Assembly: GCF_030409635.1 (NCBI RefSeq)
Contig: NZ_JAUFQF010000004.1
Span: 2,328,241-2,392,240, forward strand
Length of the DNA: 64,000 nt
Reading direction: 5' to 3'
DNA from: Vibrio agarivorans
GTDB lineage: Bacteria > Pseudomonadota > Gammaproteobacteria > Enterobacterales > Vibrionaceae
Shown: positions 4,999 through 41,614 of the stretch, one piece after another
Layout of the letters: every line of letters begins with the position of its first letter
Position numbering within the stretch: the first letter of the stretch is position 1
Program-made: the position numbers and the translations under genes
Notes under the pieces: generated by a model
Databases searched by the model: none
What the model was told of the DNA's origin: nothing
What the model saw: only the letters and a program-made list of their open reading frames with translations

Positions 4999-5377
4999 TT
5001 TCTTTGTAGCGGTATTTGCGTTGACGGGCTCTTTTCTCATGTTGCTTGCGAGTATCGGTCTGAACCGTATGCCTGACTTATTGACACGCATGCACGCAAC
5101 TACTAAAGCAGGTGCTTTGGGTGTTGGCTTGCTCGTGATCGCCTTCGCGATTGTGTTCTGGGAGGATACCTCGATCATCGTGCGTGCTGGCGCAGTGGTT
5201 GTGTTTATCATGGTCACGGCACCTATCGCTGCGCACGTTCTGGCTCGTACCAGCTATTTTGTTGGTGTAGAGGTCTGGGAAGGCACAGTGAAAGACGCGA
5301 TTAAAGAGCAATACGATATGGATACACACCAGCTGTCGAGTAAGAATTGCACTAAAGATCAATCAACTCCACAGTAA
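4988..5377 (+). CDS. mrpG: Mrp antiporter subunit G
   Basis: About 129 aa with three hydrophobic helices and the MrpG signature GLNRMPDLLTRMHATTKAG. The start is ambiguous: GTG 4985, ATG 4988 and ATG 4991 lie together and all overlap the mrpF stop. I chose the first ATG. The soluble tail after residue 105 is hydrophilic. It is the last gene of the antiporter operon and is followed by a hairpin terminator. Confidence 0.92.
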   Translation: MMIDFFVAVFALTGSFLMLLASIGLNRMPDLLTRMHATTKAGALGVGLLVIAFAIVFWEDTSIIVRAGAVVVFIMVTAPIAAHVLARTSYFVGVEVWEGTVKDAIKEQYDMDTHQLSSKNCTKDQSTPQ

Positions 5378-5534: not shown

Positions 5535-5544
5535 CGCGCCCAAT

Positions 5545-5915
5545 CTCGGACTGTTGAGACAAATGTCAATTCTGGGGGATACGCGTAGTGACCATTCAAG
5601 CTGATTGTGACGCTGCGTAGGGTAGGTATCGGTAAAGCGGTTACCGATAGACGGGATACTAGTGTTGCTAGAAGGCAACATGTTAATGGGAAACCCAACA
5701 TTGAATTCACAAACTAACGACACATTAATCAGCTCCATTCCTTTTCAATGTCCAGTATTGCAAACCGGCAATATCACGGAACCTTGAGCTCAATTTAAGT
5801 CAGCCACGTTTTAGTGGGTCATGCGCTTTGTTGTTTTTACAGCAAGGGCGTTGTCTAGTTTTAGCCGTCTAGGGATTAAGACCGGCTTATGTTGGATTTT
5901 CTCGATTCAAGGTAA
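5545..5915 (+). promoter_or_regulatory. Long structured 5' leader upstream of the diaminobutyrate fusion gene; candidate DABA-DC-AT RNA motif
   Basis: This 370-nt gene-free stretch holds a chain of hairpins readable by eye. They are: TATCGGTAA/TTACCGATA (5627-5649, perfect 9 bp); TGTTGC/GCAACA (5663-5680); ATGT..TGGG AAA CCCA..ACAT (5680-5701); TATTGC/GCAATA (5756-5773); a bulged 10-bp stem 5824-5833/5840-5850 with several G.U pairs; and GCCGTCT/AGACCGGC (5864-5886) close to the start codon. G.U pairs and bulges point to selection on RNA rather than DNA. Established knowledge, from memory: a cis-regulatory motif called DABA-DC-AT has been described upstream of genes of exactly this kind. That this leader is a member is inference; no covariance search was possible. 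Confidence 0.6.
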
Positions 5916-30799: not shown

Positions 30800-31468
30800 T
30801 TGTACAAGCTCAATGAGATCTTCGAGACAATCCAAGGGGAAGGCAGCTTTACTGGCGTGCCTTCTGTTTTTATTCGATTACAAGAGTGTCCTGTAGGTTG
30901 TTCTTGGTGTGACACTAAGCAAACCTGGGAAGCGGAACCGCAAAATGAAACCGATTTTGGTGAAGTGATTGCAAAGCAGCAGGATTCAGAAACTTGGTGT
31001 CAAGCCACAGCACAGCAGTTAGTTGAGATTTATCAACAGCAAGGCTTTAATGCTAAGCACATTGTCATTACGGGTGGTGAGCCATGCATCTACGACTTGA
31101 CTGAACTCGCACTCGCGTTTGAAGTTATTGGGTGTCGTTGCCAAATTGAAACAAGTGGTACCAGCGAAGTACGTACGACAGATTCTACTTACGTGACCGT
31201 GTCACCAAAGATTGCCATGAAAGGTAAACTGCCAGTATTAGAATCAGCACTGCGCCGTGCCAATGAAATTAAGCATCCTGTTGGCACCAGTAAAGACATA
31301 GAGCAGCTTGATGAATTGCTCTCAGGTGTAGAGCTGCGTTCAGATGTGATTATCGCCTTACAACCAATCAGTCAAAAGCCACGCGCGACAGAGTTGTGCA
31401 TTGATACCTGTATTAAGAGAAACTGGCGTCTTTCGATTCAAACTCACAAATACTTGAGCATTGCATAA
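30800..31468 (+). CDS. queE: 7-carboxy-7-deazaguanine synthase QueE
   Basis: 222-aa radical SAM enzyme of queuosine biosynthesis. The cluster motif is [10 protein letters not shown] (C-x3-C-x2-C) near residue 30, after [28 protein letters not shown] is the GGE SAM-binding motif. Start is TTG at 30800 with GGAG 6 nt upstream; no ATG gives the family N-terminus. Followed 11 nt later by queC. Confidence 0.94.
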
Positions 31469-31479
31469 GGAGAGGGGAA

Positions 31480-32166
31480 ATGAAAAAAGCAGTTGTAGTA
31501 TTCAGCGGTGGACAAGACTCGACCACTTGCCTTGTTCAAGCATTAAAGCAGTGTGATGAAGTACATGCAATCACGTTTGATTATGGCCAACGCCACAAGC
31601 AAGAGATTGAAGTAGCACAAAAGCTGGCAGCCTCCTTAGGCGTTAAAGCACATAAAGTAATGGATGTGGGCCTATTGAACGAACTGGCGATCAGTTCTCT
31701 AACTCGTGATGACATTCCTGTCTCCCATGAGCTGCAAGAAAATGGCTTGCCGAACTCGTTTGTACCTGGCCGCAATATTCTTTTCCTAACGCTTGCGGGG
31801 ATCTACGCTTACCAGATTGGCGCGCAGTCAGTCATTACCGGTGTTTGTGAGACGGACTTCTCTGGCTACCCTGATTGCCGAGATGAGTTTGTTAAGTCGA
31901 TGAATGACGCGCTAGTTAAAGGAATGGATCGTCAACTAGACATCGTGACACCACTGATGTGGCTCAACAAAGCCGAAACGTGGGCTCTAGCCGATAAGTT
32001 TGACGCCTTACAATTAGTTCGAGAGCAAACTCTAACTTGTTACAACGGAATTATTGGCGATGGCTGTGGAGACTGCCCTGCATGTCATCTACGCTCTGAA
32101 GGTCTTAATAGTTATTTAGATAATAAAGAAGCTGTGATGGCAGACTTAGAGTCTAAAAGCCAATAA
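31480..32166 (+). CDS. queC: 7-cyano-7-deazaguanine synthase QueC
   Basis: 228-aa ATP-dependent enzyme that converts CDG to preQ0. The PP-loop is [13 protein letters not shown] at residues 6-18; the C-terminal zinc site is [10 protein letters not shown]. Strong AGGAG ribosome binding site. Operon with queE. Confidence 0.96.
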
Positions 32167-32175
32167 CAAAAACGA

Positions 32176-32204
32176 AAAGAGTCGCACCAGCGACTCTTTT
32201 TCTT
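32176..32204. terminator. Bidirectional terminator after queC
   Basis: AAAGAGTCGC / GCGACTCTTT, 10-bp stem, 4-nt loop, then TTTCTTTT. On the minus strand it would have ended the HAD gene whose tail is at 32223-32279. Confidence 0.85.
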
Positions 32205-32222
32205 TTCAGCTAAAGCGTTTAT

Positions 32223-32279
32223 CTACAGTAGTAGTGATTTAATCGTCTTCACGACACCCGCATCTTTGTTGCTTGGTGC
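32223..32279 (-). pseudogene. 3' end of a HAD (Cof-type) phosphatase gene, cut by the insertion sequence
   Basis: The minus strand is open from the insertion-sequence boundary for 18 codons and then TAG: APSNKDAGVVKTIKSLLL. This fits the C-terminal end of Cof-type HAD hydrolases (A-x-SN-x-x-x-GV-x-x-x-I-x-x-L). The 5' part of such a gene, on the same strand, is at 39380-39547. The C-terminal match is short, so the identification rests on both fragments together. Confidence 0.65.
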
Positions 32280-33334
32280 GGCTTTGTTGCTTAAATCGAT
32301 GGAACTAAATCAAGAAGCTACGATCTGATCGGCTACACCCATTAATCGTCGTAGCCTCATGCCTAAACCTCGTTACAAAACAACTAACTGGACGCAGTAC
32401 AACAAAGCCTTAATAAACCGTGGTTCTCTGACCTTTTGGATTGATGAGGAAGCGATAGCTGAGTGGAAGCAAAACAAACAAGGCAAGCGCGGCAGACCTC
32501 GCCAATTCAGCGACTTAGCCATTACCACGGCACTGATGGTGAAACGCATATTCTCTATGCCGTTGAGAGCACTGCAAGGATTTCTAGACTCGGTATTTAA
32601 GCTGGCTAACACCCCGCTAGTTTGTCCGCACTACACCTGTATAAGCCGTCGAGCTAAGGAAGTTGAGGTTTCATTTAAAACTAAAACCAGAGGTGCGATA
32701 CAACACCTAGCCATTGATGCCACAGGTCTCAAGGTTTATGGCGAAGGTGAATGGAAGGTCAAGAAGCATGGTACTGACAGGAAGCGTAGGGTTTGGCGTA
32801 AGCTGCATATCGCAGTAGATACTAGCACCCACGAAATAGTCGCAGCAGAGCTGAGCTTATCTAACGTAACCGATGCCGAAGTACTTCCCAACTTGCTTAA
32901 GCAGACACGTCGTAAAATCATTGAGATATCAGGCGATGGTGCTTATTACACAAGGAATTGCCATGATGCCATACGGATCAAGCGAGCTGTTGCGCTCATC
33001 CCGCCAAGAGAGGGAGCAGCCTTCTGGGAACAAGGGCATCCTCGTAACTTAGCGGTAGGTTGCCAAAAGCTCTACGGCTCCAACAAGAAGTGGAAAAAGC
33101 GGTATGGCTATCATAAGCGCTCGCTATCAGAGACAGTAATGTACCGAGTAAAACAGCTACTAGGTGGGGAAATTAAGCTTAAGAAGTTACAATGCTCAGG
33201 TTGGCGAGACTTACGCGATGATTAAAGCGCTGAACAAGCTTACAGGGCTTGGTATGCCTGAAACTCAGTATGTTGTATAGGAATCACTCAATTTCAGGCG
33301 GTTTGGTTTCCTGTTCGAATTACGCAACAAAGCC
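32280..33334 (+). mobile_element. IS5-family insertion sequence, IS903 group
   Basis: 1,055 bp bounded by inverted repeats: left GGCTTTGTTGCTTAAATCGA (32280-32299), right end reading inward GGCTTTGTTGCGTAATTCGA (33334-33315), 18 of 20 identical. IS903 has the same end sequence type and 1,057 bp. It carries one transposase gene, which is frameshifted near its end. The 9 bp on each side (GCTTGGTGC and CATATGGAC) do not match, so there is no target duplication. Confidence 0.88.
32359..33280 (+). pseudogene. IS903-group transposase, frameshifted near the C-terminus
   Basis: The frame beginning at 32359 codes 288 aa with all three DDE residues in IDATGLK, SGDGAYY and RSLSETVMYRVKQLLGG, then stops at 33225 after QCSGWRDLRDD. 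In the +1 frame, the normal family ending follows (NAQVGETYAMIKALNKL, then GLGMPETQYVV) up to TAG 33280. A small indel around 33183-33192 explains this. The catalytic core is intact, but the last ~30 residues are replaced; activity is uncertain. Confidence 0.8.
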
Positions 33335-33572
33335 CATATGGACCCCTAATCTGCGCTAGTTTTTGATTTGCTAATGCTTGGATTGTCGAAACTCATTTGT
33401 ATCCAGATTAGTGCTGACGGGTAGGTCATCGTAACGCAGATCTGTCCATTGCCGTGCTAGCAATAACTTCGTTAGTTGAGACAGTCATTAGTACTCTGCA
33501 TTCTGAAAAATTGATATTTGAAATCTCCCACGCTAATGTTCTCAGTTAGCCCCCTGTTGTGGTAGAGAGCAC

Positions 33573-34481
33573 ATGGAACTGAAACTATTAAAAAGCTTTA
33601 TCGCGGTAGCGACACATCGCAGCTTTTCAAAAGCAGCAAAAGAACTGCATACAGTGCAACCAGCGATAAGTCGCCATATTACAAGCTTGGAAGATGAACT
33701 CGGTACGAGCTTGTTCTTTCGAACCTCACGTGAAGTTATCATTACAGCAGCAGGTGAGCAGTTACTAAAAGATGCCGTTAAAATCATAGCTCAAACAGAG
33801 AAAACCAAACAAGCGGTGATTAAAGCATCTAAAGGGACAATAGGAAGTTTAAAGATTGGTTACCTTGGTGGTGCTACGCTTAGCTTCTTACCTAGACTCG
33901 TGCGGGAGTATATTGTAGAGAATCCTAATATAGATGTTGACCTTATCGAAATGACGGCCTCTGAGCAGGCTGATGCCTTATCAAAGCGCGACATTGATAT
34001 CAGTTTCTCTCGTCCCTTACCAGATGCTGTGTCACAAGACTATATTTCAACCAATATCTATGTTGATAAATTGATGGCAGTAGTCCCTATTACCCATACT
34101 CTTGCTAATCTGTCCTCGATTAATTTGAAGCAGTTGGAAGATGACGCTTTTGTCTTGTTTGAACGCGAACAAGCTGTAGGGTTGTTTGATACCATCATTA
34201 CTCAATGCGGTATGGCAGGCTTCTCACCTAAGATAAAGAAACAGCCACAGAGCATGCAATCAGTGCTGACCCAAGTTGCATCTGGGCTCGGTGTATCAAT
34301 CGTACCTTATGCTATAAGAGATTTAAGAAGTGAGGGTTGCTGCTTTCTCGATCTTGACTCTATTGATGTGAAAATTACATTGGTCATGACACACCATTTG
34401 CATTCTCAATCGCCATCAACTCTAGCTTTCTCTGAATTGATAAAAAGTCAGATACATGGCATCGCACTCGCAATGAAATAA
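33573..34481 (+). CDS. LysR family transcriptional regulator
   Basis: 302 aa. N-terminal helix-turn-helix HRSFSKAAKELHTVQPAISRHITSL, then an effector-binding domain with the IGYLGGATLSFLPRLV start typical of the CbbR/BenM-like group. It lies 123 bp before a co-directional MFS transporter gene, which is its likely target. It is part of the 7.1-kb insert. The 238 bp before it (33335-33572) show no recognisable gene. Confidence 0.88.
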   Translation: MELKLLKSFIAVATHRSFSKAAKELHTVQPAISRHITSLEDELGTSLFFRTSREVIITAAGEQLLKDAVKIIAQTEKTKQAVIKASKGTIGSLKIGYLGGATLSFLPRLVREYIVENPNIDVDLIEMTASEQADALSKRDIDISFSRPLPDAVSQDYISTNIYVDKLMAVVPITHTLANLSSINLKQLEDDAFVLFEREQAVGLFDTIITQCGMAGFSPKIKKQPQSMQSVLTQVASGLGVSIVPYAIRDLRSEGCCFLDLDSIDVKITLVMTHHLHSQSPSTLAFSELIKSQIHGIALAMK

Positions 34482-34604
34482 CCATCTATACATTTTTTGT
34501 ATTAATTCTAGATGAAATGAATATTTTTGTTATTTAATTGCCTACCCTAGAATTTAGTCATTCCGATAAAACATCTCAATGATGAGCCAATTTAAGGTCT
34601 GACT

Positions 34605-35774
34605 ATGTCTAAAACGAAAATTGAAACCCTGAGCACAGGACGTTTGTTTCTTATGTCGAGCGCAGTCTCGGCAACTGCTGCGAATCTTTATTACAACCAA
34701 CCGATTCTACCTAAGATTGGCGCAGAACTTGGCTTAACAAGTGAACAGCTTGGCTCTGTGCCTGCTGCGGGACAAATTGGTTATGCTGCCGCACTGCTTT
34801 TCCTATCTCCATTGGGAGACACTCTGCCACGCAAGCGTCTTATCGCAATCCTTTCTGTGCTTTTGGTGCTTTCATCTTTAGTCGCATTTTCGGCATCAAG
34901 CTTGATTGCTCTGGTTATGGCTTGTTTTGCGATTGGTCTAAGTGCCAATATTACTCAACAGTTAATCCCTTTTGCAGCATCACTCAGCACTCCTGAAACA
35001 AAGGGTAAAGTGATCGGCACTCTAATGACGGGGTTAACCGTTGGTATTCTGCTATCACGTACCGTGAGTGGCTTCGTAGGTGAACAATTTGGGTGGCGTG
35101 CAGTCTTTGTGATGTCTGCAACTATTGCTGCTCTCTTTGGTGTTTTCCTCTATGTCTTTTTACCGACAAATACGCCAACATCAAAGATCCCTTACCCTAA
35201 ACTTGTTGCAAGTATGGCAACCCTGATTAAGCAACACACGGCTCTACGTAGCTCTGCATTAACAGGGGCACTGTGGTTTGCCTCATTCAACGCGCTTTGG
35301 GCAACGCTAGCTCTACATGTTAGTGAATCACCATTTAACTACAATGCTCAGCAAGCGGGTATGTTTGGTGTTATTGCATTAGCTGGTGTCGTTGGAGCAA
35401 AGGTGTCAGGTTCACTCGTCAGTAGATTTGGCTCTCGCAATATGATTAGTATGGCGTTAAGCATTATCGTGGTTGGTTTTATTATTTCAGGATTGTTTGC
35501 TGATAGCTTAATTGGCTTAATTGTCGGTATTATTTTAATCGACCTCGGTGTATTCAGTGCTCAAGTGTCGAATCAAGTCCGAGTGTTTTCTATTGACCCA
35601 CAAGCTCAGAGCCGTATCAATGGTATCTATATGCTCGGCTATTATCTTGGTGGTGCGTTTGGTTCATATGCTGGTATTCAATCGTTTGAACTAGCAGGTT
35701 GGGGAGGTGTAGTGGGCTTCAGTATTGTCGCTGTAACGCTGAGCTTTATTGTAAACCGAGCAAGCGAAAAATAG
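34605..35774 (+). CDS. MFS transporter
   Basis: 389 aa with about 12 hydrophobic helices. The first is followed by AANLYYNQPILPKIGAELG, the signature of the YgaY/YnfM-like drug-efflux group of MFS proteins; GDTLPRKRLI is the motif A loop. It probably exports a small molecule. It is paired with the LysR gene upstream within the insert; substrate unknown. Confidence 0.88.
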   Translation: MSKTKIETLSTGRLFLMSSAVSATAANLYYNQPILPKIGAELGLTSEQLGSVPAAGQIGYAAALLFLSPLGDTLPRKRLIAILSVLLVLSSLVAFSASSLIALVMACFAIGLSANITQQLIPFAASLSTPETKGKVIGTLMTGLTVGILLSRTVSGFVGEQFGWRAVFVMSATIAALFGVFLYVFLPTNTPTSKIPYPKLVASMATLIKQHTALRSSALTGALWFASFNALWATLALHVSESPFNYNAQQAGMFGVIALAGVVGAKVSGSLVSRFGSRNMISMALSIIVVGFIISGLFADSLIGLIVGIILIDLGVFSAQVSNQVRVFSIDPQAQSRINGIYMLGYYLGGAFGSYAGIQSFELAGWGGVVGFSIVAVTLSFIVNRASEK

Positions 35775-35894
35775 ACTTAGTCAGCGTTATTCATGTTTGA
35801 CTGAAACCCCAAACGTTCCTATGTCGGTAGTGAACGATATCGCAATAGCTGGTTATCGATAGTGTAAACTCACCCTCCGTTACAGAGATTTTAT

Positions 35895-36791
35895 ATGCTT
35901 AATTCTAAAAACTACCAAGACCCACTATCTGCCATGCTGTCCATACTCAACTTAAAGGTTGCTATCTCAGTGAACGCACAGTTTTGTGGTGGATGGTTGC
36001 TTGGGCATAAAACGAATGAAAAATCCTTCCATTTAATTTCTCACGGTGAGTGTATTCTGGAGCTAAATGATAAGCCTCTCCAATACCTTTCACGTGGGGA
36101 TCTAATTATTTTCATGCGTAAAGTACATCACACTTTGAAACCAAGTTTTAATTCATCAAAAGAAGAAGAACGAATTTCTCCAAATCAAGGCATTATTGCT
36201 AGTGCTACAGGGATTTTATGTGGCTCTTTTGCATATGAAAATACCAAAGCAGAAAGCTTGATGAGAGCACTCCCAGATGTACTGGTTATTCGTAATGATA
36301 GCAATGTAAGACGATGGGTTGAGCCTTTGATTAACCTTATTCAACTTGAGAGCCAAGAGCATAATTTAGGGAGTGATTTAATTATAAAAAAACTCACTGA
36401 AGCCTTGCTTATACAAGCCATACGTTCTTTTATCAAAATGGGCCACTTTGAAGTAGGTATTTTGAGACTAATGGCCGATGTAAAGTTGTCCAATGCAATA
36501 CTAGCCGTACAAAATGCTCCTGAAGCCCCGTGGACGGTGGAGCGATTAGCCAAAGAATGTGCGATGTCTAGAACAGCCTTCGCGACTCATTTTAAGAACA
36601 CATCGGCTTGGAGTCCAATGGAATATGTTACTTGGTGGCGAATGCAGGTTGCATGGTCAAGGCTCGTTGATAGGGAAACGATTTATGCTGTCTCATCATT
36701 GGTTGGTTATCGCTCTGAAGCAGCATTTTCTCGAGCTTTTAAAAAAGCATTTAGTATAGGCCCTGGAGAGGTAAGAGCGTCTAAAAGATAA
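35895..36791 (+). CDS. AraC family regulator with N-terminal cupin domain
   Basis: 298 aa. Residues about 8-190 form a cupin sensor domain beginning DPLSAMLSILNLKVAISV, as in RclR-like regulators. Residues about 205-297 hold two helix-turn-helix motifs (WTVERLAKECAMSRTAFATHF and YAVSSLVGYRSEAAFSRAFKKAF). It lies just before the DoxX-like and redoxin genes in the same direction and may control them. The DNA here is visibly A+T-rich compared with the flanking housekeeping genes. Confidence 0.88.
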   Translation: MLNSKNYQDPLSAMLSILNLKVAISVNAQFCGGWLLGHKTNEKSFHLISHGECILELNDKPLQYLSRGDLIIFMRKVHHTLKPSFNSSKEEERISPNQGIIASATGILCGSFAYENTKAESLMRALPDVLVIRNDSNVRRWVEPLINLIQLESQEHNLGSDLIIKKLTEALLIQAIRSFIKMGHFEVGILRLMADVKLSNAILAVQNAPEAPWTVERLAKECAMSRTAFATHFKNTSAWSPMEYVTWWRMQVAWSRLVDRETIYAVSSLVGYRSEAAFSRAFKKAFSIGPGEVRASKR

Positions 36792-36938
36792 TACTCGTCA
36801 CAGTCGTTCTATTGGTACTGTAGTGAGTGTGTGAACGATGAAGCATAACTCGGGAACTGTGAGGCATTAATAAGTTCAGCTTTGTGATTTAACCTATTAA
36901 AGGTAAACAATGTTAGTCATTATTCAATAGGTATACAA

Positions 36939-36953
36939 ATGGTTAAGTCAATT
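36939..36953 (+). pseudogene. 5' fragment (five codons) of the DoxX-like gene, cut by the IS256-family element
   Basis: ATG GTT AAG TCA ATT, with AGG 7 nt upstream of the ATG, ends exactly at the element's left inverted repeat. Removing the element and one copy of the target duplication joins it in frame to 38268-38702. Confidence 0.75.
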
Positions 36954-38259
36954 GAGACTGTCCTAAATTCTGTGTAACTGTCTAAACTTAAAGCCTTAAT
37001 GGCTAAGGATAGGCACATGGATAAGAAAGCACTTGAAGCTTTTGCTAAAGAAGCTGCAAAGGGAATTAAAACTCCCGATGACTTAACTGAGTTCAGCCAG
37101 ATGCTCAAAAAGATCACTGTTGAGGCGGCGCTCAACGCTGAAATGGAAGAGCATCTTGGCTACGAAAAGCACAAACCCTCAAAATCCCAAAATAGCCGTA
37201 ATGGAAAGAGCACCAAGCGTGTAAAAACAGAAGACGGCGAATTTGAACTCGATACCCCTCGCGACCGTCTTGGTTCTTTTGACCCCAAGTTAGTCAAAAA
37301 GCATCAAACACGATTTACCTCTATGGATGACAAGATCTTGTGGCTCTATGCGCAGGGCATGAGCACACGCGATATAGTGAATGCTTTTGACGAGTGGTAC
37401 GGAGCAGAGATATCACCCAGCCTAGTTTCGCGCGTCACACATGCAGTGATGGAGGAAATCGTGGAGTGGCAATCTAGACCGCTTGATGCCATCTATCCTA
37501 TCGTTTACCTCGACTGCATTGTGGTCAAAATCCGCCAAGACAAACGCATTATCAATAAATCGATCTTCCTTGCTTTAGGCATTAACACCGATGGTCAGAA
37601 AGAACTCATGGGCATGTGGATAGCCGAAAATGAGGGGGCTAAGTTTTGGCTGAGCGTTCTAACCGAACTCAATCAACGTGGCGTTGAAGATATTCTTATC
37701 GCTTGTGTCGATGGCTTGAAGGGTTTTCCCGATGCGATCAACACCGTCTTCCCGCAAACACATATTCAGCTTTGCATCGTCCATATGGTGCGGAACTCAT
37801 TGAAGTATGTGTCTTGGAAGGACTACAAGGCGGTCACAGCCGACCTGAAGCGAGTGTATCGCTCTGCTACCGAAGATGAGGCTCTACTTGAACTGGAGCG
37901 CTTTGGTGAAGTCTGGGATAGCCAGTATCCGCAAATCTCCAAGTCTTGGCGCAATCACTGGCAAAATCTCAACACCCTTTTTAGCTACCCAGAAGATATT
38001 CGTAGAGCAATTTACACGACCAATGCAATTGAGTCCCTCAATAGCGTGATCCGCAAGGCACTTAAAAAGCGTAAGATCTTCCCGAATGATGAGGCCGCAA
38101 CCAAAATGGTATATCTAGCAATCAAAGACGCCAGTAAGAAATGGACAATGCCTATTCAAAACTGGCGCCAAGCTATGAGTCGGTTTATTATCGAGTTCGA
38201 GGAACGCCTGGAGAAACACATTAACTAAACGGCAGTTACACAGAATCTGTTACAGCCTC
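36954..38259 (+). mobile_element. IS256-family insertion sequence with 8-bp target duplication
   Basis: 1,306 bp. Left end GAGACTGTCCTAAATTCTGT and right end read inward GAGGCTGTAACAGATTCTGT share ATTCTGTGTAACTG further in. AGTCAATT stands directly outside both ends (36946-36953 and 38260-38267), an 8-bp target duplication as expected for this family. The transposase gene is full length. The clean duplication suggests a recent, unrearranged insertion. Confidence 0.93.
36999..38228 (+). CDS. IS256-family (Mutator-like) transposase
   Basis: 409 aa. DDE-type transposase with conserved blocks YLDCIVVKIR, ACVDGLKGFPDAI and YTTNAIESLNSVIRKALKKR (the catalytic Glu lies in AIESLN). Full length for the family. 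A second possible start is ATG 37017. There are no visible defects, so the element may be active. Confidence 0.95.
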   Translation: MAKDRHMDKKALEAFAKEAAKGIKTPDDLTEFSQMLKKITVEAALNAEMEEHLGYEKHKPSKSQNSRNGKSTKRVKTEDGEFELDTPRDRLGSFDPKLVKKHQTRFTSMDDKILWLYAQGMSTRDIVNAFDEWYGAEISPSLVSRVTHAVMEEIVEWQSRPLDAIYPIVYLDCIVVKIRQDKRIINKSIFLALGINTDGQKELMGMWIAENEGAKFWLSVLTELNQRGVEDILIACVDGLKGFPDAINTVFPQTHIQLCIVHMVRNSLKYVSWKDYKAVTADLKRVYRSATEDEALLELERFGEVWDSQYPQISKSWRNHWQNLNTLFSYPEDIRRAIYTTNAIESLNSVIRKALKKRKIFPNDEAATKMVYLAIKDASKKWTMPIQNWRQAMSRFIIEFEERLEKHIN

Positions 38260-38315
38260 AGTCAATTTCAATTAAGATACTTTCTAATCTCTTACATCTT
38301 TTTAGTTTCATCTTT

Positions 38316-38702
38316 ATGATGAAGTTTGCAATGCCAAAGCTAGTTGGTAACCCAATAAGCATCAAAACATTTGACTACTTTGCCACTGTACTGCCAGTAG
38401 ATGGAGACAGTTATCGATTATTCGTGGGCTTGTTAGAGCTAGGAGTTGGCTTATTGCTGATTGTAAATATTTTTATTGCTGATAGAGCAAAAAATGCTTA
38501 TGCCATCTATGTGTCTTATTTTTTGTTGACAGGGGTTTGTATTGGAGCCTTGTTCCACGAATACTTTGTAAGACCAGAGCCAGTCGCATTTCTGGTTCAA
38601 TTGTCAGTGATTTTCCTATTTGTCGCAGCATTCCAATTTTTTGTTAGCTTCAAATATTTAGAGAAAGACAAAGCACTTGCTTTATTTGGCATCGACAAGT
38701 AA
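38316..38702 (+). CDS. DoxX-like membrane protein, 3' part left after the IS insertion
   Basis: 128 aa from the first ATG after the element; the frame is open back to 38268 and continues the five codons at 36939. The uninterrupted protein would be about 149 aa with four hydrophobic helices and FMMKFAMPKLVGNPISIKTF near the start, as in DoxX-like proteins. Without its normal start and ribosome binding site, it is probably not expressed properly, unless an internal ATG (38316, 38319 or 38331) is used. It is followed 55 nt later by a redoxin. Confidence 0.7.
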   Translation: MMKFAMPKLVGNPISIKTFDYFATVLPVDGDSYRLFVGLLELGVGLLLIVNIFIADRAKNAYAIYVSYFLLTGVCIGALFHEYFVRPEPVAFLVQLSVIFLFVAAFQFFVSFKYLEKDKALALFGIDK

Positions 38703-38757
38703 CTAATAATCAGACTACTTATGGTATGGGTAATTTTAATAATTTAATGAGGTAATC

Positions 38758-39294
38758 ATGAGACAATCAATAAAGCTGTCAACTGGCGATAATTTTCCTG
38801 CAATGCAAGCAACTCTCTTAGATGGCTCTTCCATCAACTTAAATGAGGCTTATGGTGGCGCAGATTGGCAGTTACTCGTTGTATATCGTGGTCGTCATTG
38901 TCCACATTGTACTCGTTACTTGAATCAACTGCAGCAGTATTTGAAAGATCTAAAAGCGATTGGGATCAGTGTATCTGCGGTTTCTGCTGATTCCAAAGCT
39001 CAATTGGAACAGCACCTAAATCAATTAGAAATTACTTACCCGATAGCTTATGGACTAACGGAAGAGCAAATGAAGCAGCTTGGTGTTTATATCTCTACGC
39101 CACGCTCAGAACAAGAAACAGACCACAATTTCTCTGAGCCAGCATTATTTGTGATTAACCAACATGGCACATTGCAAATGATTAACATTTCAAATGCACC
39201 TTTCTTCCGTCCAGAACTTAGTGCTATTGTTAAAGGATTAACTTTCGTTAGAGCGCAAGGAAACTACCCTATCAGAGGTACAGTAAAATATTAA
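38758..39294 (+). CDS. Peroxiredoxin-like (AhpC/TSA superfamily) protein
   Basis: 178 aa, thioredoxin fold. The active-site motif is YRGRHCPHCTRYL near residues 42-54 (CxxC), with the GDNFPAMQATLLDG start of the redoxin family. No signal peptide, so cytoplasmic. It probably reduces peroxides or disulphides. It lies downstream of the interrupted DoxX-like gene, with an AraC regulator before it. Confidence 0.85.
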   Translation: MRQSIKLSTGDNFPAMQATLLDGSSINLNEAYGGADWQLLVVYRGRHCPHCTRYLNQLQQYLKDLKAIGISVSAVSADSKAQLEQHLNQLEITYPIAYGLTEEQMKQLGVYISTPRSEQETDHNFSEPALFVINQHGTLQMINISNAPFFRPELSAIVKGLTFVRAQGNYPIRGTVKY

Positions 39295-39326
39295 TCCATA
39301 TCATTTATGGTACGAAATAAACCCTA

Positions 39327-39354
39327 AAAAGGGCTTCGTCATTGAAGCCCTTTT
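39327..39354 (+). terminator. Terminator after the redoxin gene
   Basis: AAAAGGGCTTC / GAAGCCCTTTT, perfect 11-bp stem, 6-nt loop. Confidence 0.85.
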
Positions 39355-39379
39355 CGTGTTTGTGTGGTTCTAAAAAGGC

Positions 39380-39547
39380 TCAGGACCGCAGGCTATAATA
39401 TTGACGGCCAGAAGCGGCAGAGAAAAGTATACCTTTGCTTTCAAGCTGTAAGATGATTTCGAATAATTCTGGGTCTAGACGACCGTATTGATCGAGTAAT
39501 GTGCCGTCCATGTCGGAGGCGATAAACTTAATGTCAGGTGTTTGCAT
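39380..39547 (-). pseudogene. 5' end of a HAD (Cof-type) phosphatase gene, truncated
   Basis: 55 codons from ATG 39547 to TGA 39380. The nucleophile motif is SDMDGTLLD at residues 11-19 (HAD motif I, DxDGT), and the motif II region FSAASGRQYYSL lies near residues 42-53, where coding similarity ends. The family is about 270 aa, so most of the protein is missing. The matching C-terminal end is found 7.1 kb away at 32223-32279 on the same strand. It lies 23 nt downstream of the modF-like gene, suggesting a former operon. Confidence 0.85.
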
Positions 39548-39570
39548 TGATATACTCAAAAGTCGATGGT

Positions 39571-41043
39571 TTATGCCACGGTGTTAATTTTTGCTCGATA
39601 ACATTGTAATCCTTCATCAAAATGAAAGCTAAGTACATTATCTATTCCTAAGATTTTGTCTTCATCATAGTGAGACACATATAGAACTTGGCATAGTTGT
39701 TTACTGACGAGATAACTTACTGTGTTTTTGAAAAGCATTCTGCCCAAATAATCTAAACCTTGATAGGGCTCATCTAAGATCAGCAATCTGGGGTGTTTGA
39801 TCAGTGCACGAGCAAGTAAGGCCAGGCGTTGCTGTGCATAATCGAGTTGACGAAATGGTGTATTTCGATATTCCGATAAATGAAGAATCTCCAACCACTC
39901 AAGCGCTTCATCAATTTGTGCTTTTGTTGGCTTTCTATAAAGACCGATAGAATCATAAAATCCTGAGATGACAGCCTCAAGAGTGCTGCAGCCTGCACGA
40001 TATTGAAGGTGCAACGCAGAAGAGACCATTCCAATCTGCTGCTTAATTTGCCAGATTGTTTCACCACTGCCACGCTGTCGACCAAAGATGACGATATCGT
40101 TACTATAACACTGGGAATGGTCACCAAAAATGAGTCCAAGTAGCGTACTTTTTCCGCAGCCATTCGGTCCTTTTATCTGCCAGTGTTGCAATGGGTCTAT
40201 CTGCCAATTTAGGCCGGTAAAGATGACTTTATCGGTATAGGCAACATGCCCGTCTTGGATTTTGAATATGGTGTCGCCATCCGTTGAGAGGTGCTTGTGT
40301 TTATCCAGCAACGGTTGAACTTTTTCTGATTGCCGTTTGCTTTGTGAGGTGAGTTGTTTGATTACGCGGTGCTCTTGCCATTCACCAAAGGAGAAGGTAT
40401 CGACTAGGGAGTGATGACCAAATAGGGCGATTTTATCGACCCAGGCTGGCATGTCTTCAAAACGAGAAATACCGCAGAGAATCGGCATGGTAGTGCTCAA
40501 TGTCGCTAAGTAGTGCTGCAGCGATTGGCGATGTTGAATATCTAGGCCAGCGAAAGGGTCATCGAGTAACAACCCGTCGGGATTGAGGGCAATTGCTCTG
40601 GCCAGCATGACTCTGCGGCTTTCACCCGTAGACAGGGCGCGGAAACCAGTATTTGCTAGGTGCTGAAGGTCTAGCTGCTCAAGTAGTTGCTGGCGTTTGG
40701 TTGAAGTCATACCCTTGATTGAAATCAATTCAGCAACCGTACTGCCTTGGTCAATCTTATCTAGAAAGTCTGTATCATCTTTAGCCAGTTCATCTTCAAG
40801 TAAGCGCTGCTGCTCTTTAAGAGAGACCTGCACCCATGAATAGGGGTTGTCTATCTCTCCGTCTACGATAGTTTCATCGTCAGATTTGCCCAAGTTATCA
40901 AACAAAGCACTTATGGAAGTACCATCAGTACAAAACAGAACCCAGCTTTCTTTGTGATGGATTTTCCAATCCTTGATAGACAATCGTGTAGTAGGGGATG
41001 TTAACGTAACGTCCTTAAAAATTAGTTCCATAAGTGCTTCCAT
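39571..41043 (-). CDS. modF: ModF-like twin ATP-binding cassette protein
   Basis: 490 aa with two ABC ATPase domains and no membrane part, as in ModF/PhrA. The domains are asymmetric. The first has no proper Walker A (CTDGTSIS where GxxGxGKST is expected), but has an intact signature LSTGESRR and Walker B LLLDDP with Asp for Glu. The second has Walker A GPNGCGKSTLL, a degenerate signature LDYAQQR, and Walker B LLILDEP. So one composite site is complete and one is dead. Function is unclear; linked to molybdate genes in other species. Alternative start ATG 41031. Confidence 0.82.
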   Translation of the reverse strand: MEALMELIFKDVTLTSPTTRLSIKDWKIHHKESWVLFCTDGTSISALFDNLGKSDDETIVDGEIDNPYSWVQVSLKEQQRLLEDELAKDDTDFLDKIDQGSTVAELISIKGMTSTKRQQLLEQLDLQHLANTGFRALSTGESRRVMLARAIALNPDGLLLDDPFAGLDIQHRQSLQHYLATLSTTMPILCGISRFEDMPAWVDKIALFGHHSLVDTFSFGEWQEHRVIKQLTSQSKRQSEKVQPLLDKHKHLSTDGDTIFKIQDGHVAYTDKVIFTGLNWQIDPLQHWQIKGPNGCGKSTLLGLIFGDHSQCYSNDIVIFGRQRGSGETIWQIKQQIGMVSSALHLQYRAGCSTLEAVISGFYDSIGLYRKPTKAQIDEALEWLEILHLSEYRNTPFRQLDYAQQRLALLARALIKHPRLLILDEPYQGLDYLGRMLFKNTVSYLVSKQLCQVLYVSHYDEDKILGIDNVLSFHFDEGLQCYRAKINTVA

Positions 41044-41101
41044 TCATCCTTTGGTTTATTTATATCAAGGATGAGCGTTGATATAAACTGTAGGCAAACA
41101 A

Positions 41102-41135
41102 AAAGCCCAGAGTCGATAAACCGACTCTGGGCTTT
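41102..41135. terminator. Terminator between the DUF2750 gene and the modF-like gene
   Basis: Perfect 14-bp stem AAAGCCCAGAGTCG / CGACTCTGGGCTTT, 6-nt loop. Confidence 0.85.
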
Positions 41136-41156
41136 ATAGAAAGAAGGAAATAGACC

Positions 41157-41507
41157 TTAAAGGTATTTCTTCGCCATATCTGCTGGCTCTACTTCTTTAC
41201 CTTCTAGCTTGTCGTTCCAGTTAGGACCCACAAGCACACCATCCTCGTCGAGTGTGATTAGCCAATCTTCAACAAAAATATCAAGTGGAATTTCCAACAC
41301 TTCGAAATCAGCCCATTCTTCAACGTTGTGAAGTTTTGCATCGGCTTCATTTGACCAAAATGGCATCACTTCAGAGTTTTCAAATTCGGTTGAATCTACA
41401 GCCAACCAACCATCTTCGTTACGCAGACCCCATACTTTTGCGGTGTCTTTAGTTTCGCTAATAAATAGCTCTAGGTTAGCGTCAATGTTATCTGTCAGTT
41501 TAGTCAT
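41157..41507 (-). CDS. DUF2750 domain protein
   Basis: 116 aa, acidic, cytoplasmic. The features WGLRNEDGWLA, MPFWSNEADAKLH and FVEDWLITLDEDGVLVGPNW fit DUF2750, whose role is unknown. Start at ATG 41507 (MTKLTDNI); the open frame reaches 41558 but with no better initiation site. Single gene flanked by terminators. Confidence 0.85.
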   Translation of the reverse strand: MTKLTDNIDANLELFISETKDTAKVWGLRNEDGWLAVDSTEFENSEVMPFWSNEADAKLHNVEEWADFEVLEIPLDIFVEDWLITLDEDGVLVGPNWNDKLEGKEVEPADMAKKYL

Positions 41508-41614
41508 TATGAAAATCTCAATAATAGTTAGAAGATGATTCTTCAATACGTTGAACACTATAGCACTTTTGGCTTTATGCGAATATGTAAACTATCGAAT
41601 CTAGAAAACAAAAA

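What the first reader, a model, noticed from the sequence alone, without database searches (positions are those of the whole stretch)
32223..39547. A HAD phosphatase gene split in two by a ~7.1-kb insertion
On the minus strand, 55 codons of a Cof-type HAD hydrolase start at 39547 (SDMDGTLLD, ASGRQYYSL) and break off at 39380. An 18-codon tail that fits the C-terminus of the same family (APSNKDAGVVKTIKSLL, then TAG) starts exactly at the insertion-sequence edge, 32279. About 200 codons of the middle are gone. The simplest reading is queE-queC, then HAD and modF-like on the other strand, as the ancestral order, with 32280-~39383 being inserted DNA that also deleted part of the target. Both fragments are short and easily missed in annotation.
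Basis: partly seen in the sequence, partly recalled or inferred. Interest (0 to 1): 0.75.

Follow-up and report, generated by a model that had tools for sequence, protein, structure and literature searches.

The report
Phosphatase gene replaced by mobile DNA
In this marine bacterium a phosphatase gene has lost its middle, which was replaced by a 7.1-kb block of foreign stress-response-type genes bordered by a transposable element; the gene damage is real but of an ordinary kind.

Summary
On the minus strand, 54 codons of a Cof-type HAD phosphatase (39547 to 39386) and its last 18 codons (32279-32226, stop 32225-32223) flank about 7.1 kb of other DNA. The left edge is the outer base of a full-length ISVa2 (IS5 family) copy without target duplication; the right edge bears no IS. 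The insert carries LysR-MFS, an RclR-like AraC regulator, a small membrane-protein gene and a redoxin. A second element (IS256 family, 8-bp duplication) broke the membrane-protein gene. The AraC gene has closer relatives outside the genus (Psychromonas-type, 65-67%) than in it (46%). One refinement: queC-HAD-modF looks ancestral only for this genome and G007; 0 of 28 other inspected queC loci have it, and 8 of 28 run queC straight into DUF2750. The HAD is a pseudogene made by IS-associated insertion plus deletion: a new example of a known kind. Which recombination step made it (IS adjacent deletion or IS-anchored one-sided recombination) cannot be decided here.

The parts
30800..31468 (+). queE (left flank)
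   Evidence: ORF; 90% aa in G007 locus L096, collinear
31480..32166 (+). queC (left flank)
   Evidence: Pfam QueC PF06508 1.8e-82; 93% identical in G007
32223..32279 (-). C-terminal 18 codons plus stop of the HAD gene (pseudogene part)
   Evidence: 13 of 18 residues identical to the end of the G007 HAD; 0 of 20000 shuffles as good
32280..33334 (+). ISVa2 copy (IS5 family), 1055 bp with terminal inverted repeats and no 9-bp target duplication; transposase ORF 32359-33225 is 288 aa against 306 aa in the 99% identical copy L007, with a different C-terminus
33355..33465 (.). probable remnant of an IS end (IS66-type, tentative)
   Evidence: 78-89% matches in 5 of 60 other genomes; in L121 the match lies just upstream of IS66-like ORFs (gene names recalled), in L114 and L118 it does not
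33573..34481 (+). LysR-family regulator (cargo)
   Evidence: Pfam; paired with the MFS gene at 68-73% aa in G020, G016, G129, G005
34605..35774 (+). MFS transporter (cargo)
   Evidence: Pfam; 82-88% aa in four genus genomes, 61% in L137
35895..36791 (+). AraC-family regulator with Cupin_6, RclR-like (cargo)
   Evidence: Pfam; NCBIfam RclR 134.1 bits, cutoff 400; best 46% elsewhere in the genus, 65-67% for the three best other hits
36816..36945 (+). promoter-like stretch conserved with the AraC-redoxin intergenic region of L137
   Evidence: 82 identical positions against mean 60.8 and maximum 69 in 60 shuffles
36939..36953 (+). first five codons of the small membrane-protein gene, cut by the IS256-family element
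   Evidence: read; the same frame is open from 38262
36954..38259 (+). IS256-family element, 1306 bp, 8-bp duplication AGTCAATT; five more copies in the genome
38262..38702 (+). rest of the small membrane-protein gene (helical in a low-confidence single-sequence model; no family found)
38758..39294 (+). redoxin, AhpC/TSA family (cargo)
   Evidence: Pfam; 69% aa in L137
39327..39354 (.). terminator-like hairpin at the right end of the cargo
   Evidence: one hairpin seen on both strands, counted as 2; shuffles mean 0.8, sd 0.8
39386..39547 (-). N-terminal 54 codons of the HAD gene (pseudogene part)
39571..41043 (-). modF-like ABC ATPase gene (right flank)
   Evidence: NCBIfam ModF 432.1 bits, cutoff 459; 64% aa in G007 beside the HAD

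Best explanation
The ancestor of this strain had an intact Cof-type HAD phosphatase gene between queC and a modF-like gene. Mobile DNA carrying ISVa2 and a stress-response-type cassette (LysR-MFS, RclR-like AraC, small membrane protein, redoxin) replaced 193 of its codons, leaving a pseudogene in two pieces. Shown: the intact gene in the best-matching relative, the two matching fragments, ISVa2 exactly at the left edge without a target duplication, cargo that is rare or absent in the genus sample, and an IS256-family insertion with its own duplication. Inferred: the cargo entered at about HAD codon 54, and ISVa2, by an adjacent deletion from its left end or as the homologous anchor of a one-sided recombination, removed HAD codons 55-247. 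Most likely result: no HAD enzyme is made, and the redoxin is cut off from a conserved promoter-like stretch by the IS256-family element.
For: Intact 265-codon HAD between queC and modF in G007; fragment alignments and chance tests; only the N fragment and two distant paralogs (27% and 24%; G007 has two at 26% and 24%) in a search of this genome with the whole HAD; ISVa2 boundaries and missing duplication; [quoted passage not shown] IS256-family copy with an 8-bp direct repeat, the five other copies having repeats of 8 bp (four) or 9 bp (one); small membrane ORF in 1 of 226 genus genomes at E 1e-10, its own; AraC at most 46% elsewhere in the genus but 65-67% outside; redoxin, AraC and MFS together on one 8,979-bp contig.
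Against: No intermediate was seen: no strain with only ISVa2 in the HAD, or with the cargo beside an intact HAD. Missing duplications are usual for this IS: only 2 of 15 full-length copies examined show a 9-bp duplication, so the absence here points to no particular mechanism. LysR-MFS is not foreign to the genus: the pair occurs in four genus genomes, so the insert may be of mixed origin. The donor's exact edges are unknown, so microhomology at the right edge could not be tested. Only one relative (G007) was seen with the immediate ancestral order.
Confidence: 0.93

Rival explanations
1. Mechanism rival 1: one-sided, IS-anchored recombination after DNA uptake. An ISVa2 copy already sat at HAD codon 247; incoming DNA with its own ISVa2 recombined there and joined illegitimately at HAD codon 54, gaining cargo and losing 193 codons in one step.
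For: Explains simultaneous gain and loss, the IS on one side only and the lack of a duplication. A process akin to it is proposed for gene displacement in Vibrio cholerae (PMC5361080, passages).
Against: The same paper calls the process quite rare in the organisms where it was measured. No strain with ISVa2 alone in the HAD was seen in these calls.
Confidence: 0.35
2. Mechanism rival 2: ISVa2 adjacent deletion after the cargo had entered the HAD; the deletion ran from the IS left end to HAD codon 247.
For: The left edge is exactly the outermost IS base; adjacent deletions are described as common in IS903 (PMC11708052, passages).
Against: The original entry of the cargo at codon 54 remains unexplained.
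Confidence: 0.4
3. Mechanism rival 3: a composite ISVa2-cargo-ISVa2 transposon landed in the HAD and later lost its right copy together with part of the HAD.
For: There are three full-length ISVa2 copies in the genome.
Against: No second ISVa2 match at the right edge.
Confidence: 0.15
4. Assembly artefact at the repeated IS copies.
For: ISVa2 has 3 full-length and the IS256-family element 6 copies in the assembly.
Against: The HAD/cargo junction on the right has no second match in the genome, and both outer flanks are collinear with G007 on the correct sides, which a false join would hardly restore.
Confidence: 0.03
5. The fragments are two unrelated short ORFs and no HAD gene was there.
For: The C tail is only 18 codons.
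Against: Tail score 65 against 30 for the next best of 55,175 window peptides; intact gene at the same place in G007.
Confidence: 0.01

Closest known systems
IS-associated deletion with gene loss (adjacent deletion, IS903 and others; PMC11708052, abstract and passages)
   Same: IS exactly at a deletion edge, no target duplication, neighbouring gene part lost
   Different: Here several kb of other cargo lie on the other side of the IS, so it is a replacement, not a plain deletion
Homology-facilitated illegitimate recombination (as discussed in PMC5361080, passages)
   Same: One homologous edge, one illegitimate edge, foreign genes in and resident codons out
   Different: The anchor would be an IS; not demonstrated here
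RclR-RclX oxidant defence of Pseudomonas aeruginosa (PMC7950407, passages)
   Same: AraC-type RclR-like regulator near a peroxiredoxin-type gene
   Different: The redoxin here is AhpC/TSA family, while RclX is described as AhpD-like; the regulator is far below the NCBIfam RclR cutoff
Cof-type HAD-IIB phosphatase (TIGR00099)
   Same: The G007 ortholog scores 170.2 bits, cutoff 137
   Different: In the window only two fragments remain

Membership tests
Cof-type HAD-IIB hydrolase | whole-protein score above the TIGR00099 cutoff (intact ortholog) | tested here: met
   G007 HAD 170.2 bits against 137
Cof-type HAD-IIB hydrolase | complete catalytic core in the window copy | tested here: not met
   residues 55-247 of 265 missing
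ISVa2 (IS5 family) | IS5-type transposase | tested here: met
   NF033579 355.3 bits, cutoff 140
ISVa2 (IS5 family) | full-length match to annotated ISVa2 | tested here: met
   query 1-1055 or 1-1058 at about 92.5% identity to records annotated ISVa2
ISVa2 (IS5 family) | 9-bp target duplication (IS903 group; group and length recalled) | tested here: not met
   flanks GCTTGGTGC and CATATGGAC; also not seen in 12 of the 14 other full-length copies
IS256 family element | IS256 transposase and 8-bp duplication (length recalled) | tested here: met
   NF033543 426.3 bits, cutoff 150; AGTCAATT on both sides
RclR (reactive-chlorine regulator) | NCBIfam NF040475 cutoff of 400 bits | tested here: not met
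   134.1 bits
RclR-RclX-like module | regulator beside a peroxiredoxin-type gene with a shared, conserved promoter region | tested here: inconclusive
   direct neighbours in L137, with the intergenic stretch conserved; in the window the small ORF and an IS256-family element lie between; oxidant induction not testable
ModF | NCBIfam NF008186 cutoff of 459 bits | tested here: not met
   432.1 bits: ModF-like

The most novel reading that the evidence does not exclude
The queC-DUF2750 interval is a repeated landing place for foreign genes in this genus, and the block that landed on the HAD is an RclR-like, transferable oxidant-defence cassette that includes a membrane protein of an undescribed family.
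Probability: 0.15. Interest if true: 0.4.

Novelty: new member of a known kind. Interest (0 to 1): 0.22.

Why it matters
It is a clean example, with an intact relative for comparison, of how IS-bordered DNA replaces part of a resident gene and leaves two short fragments that annotation may miss. It also suggests a stress-response-type cassette moving between marine Gammaproteobacteria and then being damaged by a second element.

Tried and rejected
Named modF loci (15 loci; ORFs listed for 2 of them) were the wrong comparison: in those two, modF sits beside other genes, not queC. The plasmid search with the whole insert (stopped at 5000 records) found 0 records covering 80% of the query; the listed hits are IS matches. 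A donor for the whole insert was not found: (148 genomes, 109 with a match, list of places cut off) the listed places cover an IS, the IS-end remnant, LysR-MFS, or pieces of AraC, redoxin or HAD. The family search around G510 found the AraC in 1 of 24 genomes, G510 itself.

The small membrane protein was first taken for DoxX-like from memory (notes); Pfam gives no match, so the name was dropped. It has no relative but itself. Its single-sequence model is poor (mean pLDDT 61.1) and was not compared with structure libraries.

ISVa2 without target duplication was first read as a sign of rearrangement; the control weakened this: 2 of 15 full-length copies have the duplication (one exact, one with one mismatch). 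That control was offered 32 loci (all 32 present; three are this genome's, otherwise one per genome); 17 were dropped because the copy was not full length at both ends.

In drafting I took all IS256-family copies to have 8-bp repeats; one search shows 8 bp for five of six and 9 bp for one. The 9-bp flanks of this ISVa2 copy do not pair with those of the other two full-length copies in this genome. The paper searches returned no paper; the listing (ISVa2) was seen but no paper of it was opened.

Full report
WHAT IS THERE. The window lies in a 4.9-Mb, 4-contig genome, taken to be a Vibrio from the titles of its modF relatives and the hosts of its IS. On the minus strand, an ATG at 39547 opens 54 codons of a HAD phosphatase (Pfam PF08282 positions 1-46 of 255). 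Similarity to relatives stops at 39388-39386; one more codon and a TGA at 39382-39380 follow. At 32279-32226, also on the minus strand, 18 codons APSNKDAGVVKTIKSLLL and a TAG fit the end of the same family. The tail is short, so it was tested: 0 of 20000 shuffles reach its score, and among 55,175 stop-free 18-residue six-frame peptides of the window it scores 65 against 30 for the runner-up.

COMPARISON WITH RELATIVES. DNA searches with queE-queC and with HAD-modF covered 227 genus genomes, this one included (223 and 180 with a match; the lists of places were cut off). The best other match for queE-queC, at 79%, is G007, and it is also the best for HAD-modF; the two lie within 2 kb. Its locus L096 has queE, queC, one intact HAD gene of 265 codons, the modF-like gene, DUF2750, OmpA and TolC-like genes, with no insert (Pfam families of the window copies). 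Both window fragments align to the ends of that HAD: 81% identity for the N part and 72% for the tail. Orthologs at other places in five further genomes (L097-L101) match over the whole length, 67-69% identical. The missing part is codons 55-247, 193 codons. A search of this genome with the whole G007 protein finds the N fragment and two distant Cof-type paralogs (27% and 24%); G007 also has two (26% and 24%). So the middle was most likely lost, not moved; the search did not return the 18-codon tail, so a very short moved piece could be missed.

HOW OLD IS THE ORDER? In 28 other queE-queC loci (the best-scoring ones, with 1.5-kb flanks) 0 have this HAD ortholog beside queC. Eight of 28 have DUF2750 directly after queC; in the other 20 DUF2750 is not within the flank. 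In one of these, G039, a wider stretch shows a GGDEF-TPR gene between queC and DUF2750. A different HAD (22-27% to this one where both matched; YidA-like, name recalled) lies upstream of queE in 25 of 28, and not beside queE in this genome or G007.

ANATOMY OF THE INSERT (32280 to about 39385, 7.1 kb). (1) ISVa2, 32280-33334: inverted termini, left end exactly at the HAD tail, no 9-bp duplication. Its transposase is 288 aa and differs at the C-terminus from the 306-aa, 99% identical copy L007. Missing duplications are common for this IS: 13 of 15 full-length copies, this one included, lack one. (2) A probable IS-end remnant, about 33355-33465: matches in 5 of 60 other genomes; IS66-like ORFs lie beside it in L121 but not in L114 or L118, the other two loci whose ORFs I listed, so the type is tentative. 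(3) LysR and MFS genes; the same pair occurs at 68-73% and 82-88% in four genus genomes without AraC or redoxin in the stretches fetched. (4) An AraC/Cupin_6 regulator, RclR-like but far under the family cutoff. (5) A small gene broken by an IS256-family element with an 8-bp duplication; of five other copies in the genome four have 8-bp and one 9-bp direct repeats. (6) An AhpC/TSA redoxin and a terminator-like hairpin.

ORIGIN OF THE CARGO. Within the genus the AraC has matches under 1e-40 in 11 of 226 genomes including its own, the best other at 46%; the small ORF has a match under 1e-10 in 1 of 226, its own. Outside, the three best AraC relatives reach 65-67%. Of the 11 AraC hits of 57-67% there, 7 lie on contigs whose longest length equals that of a redoxin hit (which lists 120 of 1284 hits); this suggests linked genes. 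It was checked for one: L137 (8,979 bp; an AraC on a contig of that length is named Psychromonas sp.) has redoxin and AraC back to back and an MFS gene near. The L137 intergenic region aligns to 36816-36945 of the window (82 identities; 60 base shuffles mean 60.8, maximum 69). In the window this stretch lies before the small membrane-protein gene and the redoxin, so the IS256-family element sits between a conserved promoter-like stretch and the redoxin. In 394 order-level genomes the AraC had a match at 1e-75 in 2, this genome and G510, the source of L137. The redoxin itself is not rare in the genus (54-61% in six loci), and LysR-MFS occurs there too, so the insert may be of mixed origin.

MECHANISM. 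Insertion plus deletion is shown; the path is inferred. An IS edge without duplication fits an ISVa2 adjacent deletion; adjacent deletions are described as common in IS903 (PMC11708052; abstract and passages read). It fits equally a one-sided, IS-anchored recombination with an illegitimate right end, of the type discussed for Vibrio cholerae (PMC5361080; passages read). I put 0.40 on the first, 0.35 on the second and 0.15 on a composite transposon. An assembly error is unlikely, because the right junction has no second match in the genome and both outer flanks match G007.

FUNCTION. The HAD is almost surely dead. The cargo resembles the RclR-RclX oxidant defence of Pseudomonas aeruginosa (PMC7950407; passages read), where an AraC-type regulator induces an adjacent peroxiredoxin gene, but RclX is AhpD-like while this redoxin is AhpC/TSA. 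That role is an inference.

VERDICT.

Noticed in passing
window 36954-38259: IS256-family element breaks a small membrane-protein gene after its fifth codon; six copies in the genome, 99.5-100% identical, with 8-bp direct repeats in five and a 9-bp repeat in one, suggest a recent burst.
   Followed up: partly
window 38262-38702: The small membrane-protein ORF has no Pfam match, no relative but itself among 5.8 billion proteins at that search's sensitivity, and a match in 1 of 226 genus genomes, its own.
   Followed up: partly
window 32166-41513 (queC-DUF2750 interval): The gene content between queC and DUF2750 varies in the genus: nothing (8 of 28 loci), a GGDEF-TPR gene in G039, HAD+modF in G007.
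   Followed up: partly
window 36816-36945: Stretch conserved with the AraC-redoxin intergenic region of L137; candidate control region of the RclR-like regulator.
   Followed up: partly
window 33355-33465: Probable remnant of an IS end (IS66-type, tentative) beside ISVa2.
   Followed up: partly
window 5540-5700: DABA-DC-AT cis-regulatory RNA, 136.2 bits.
   Followed up: no
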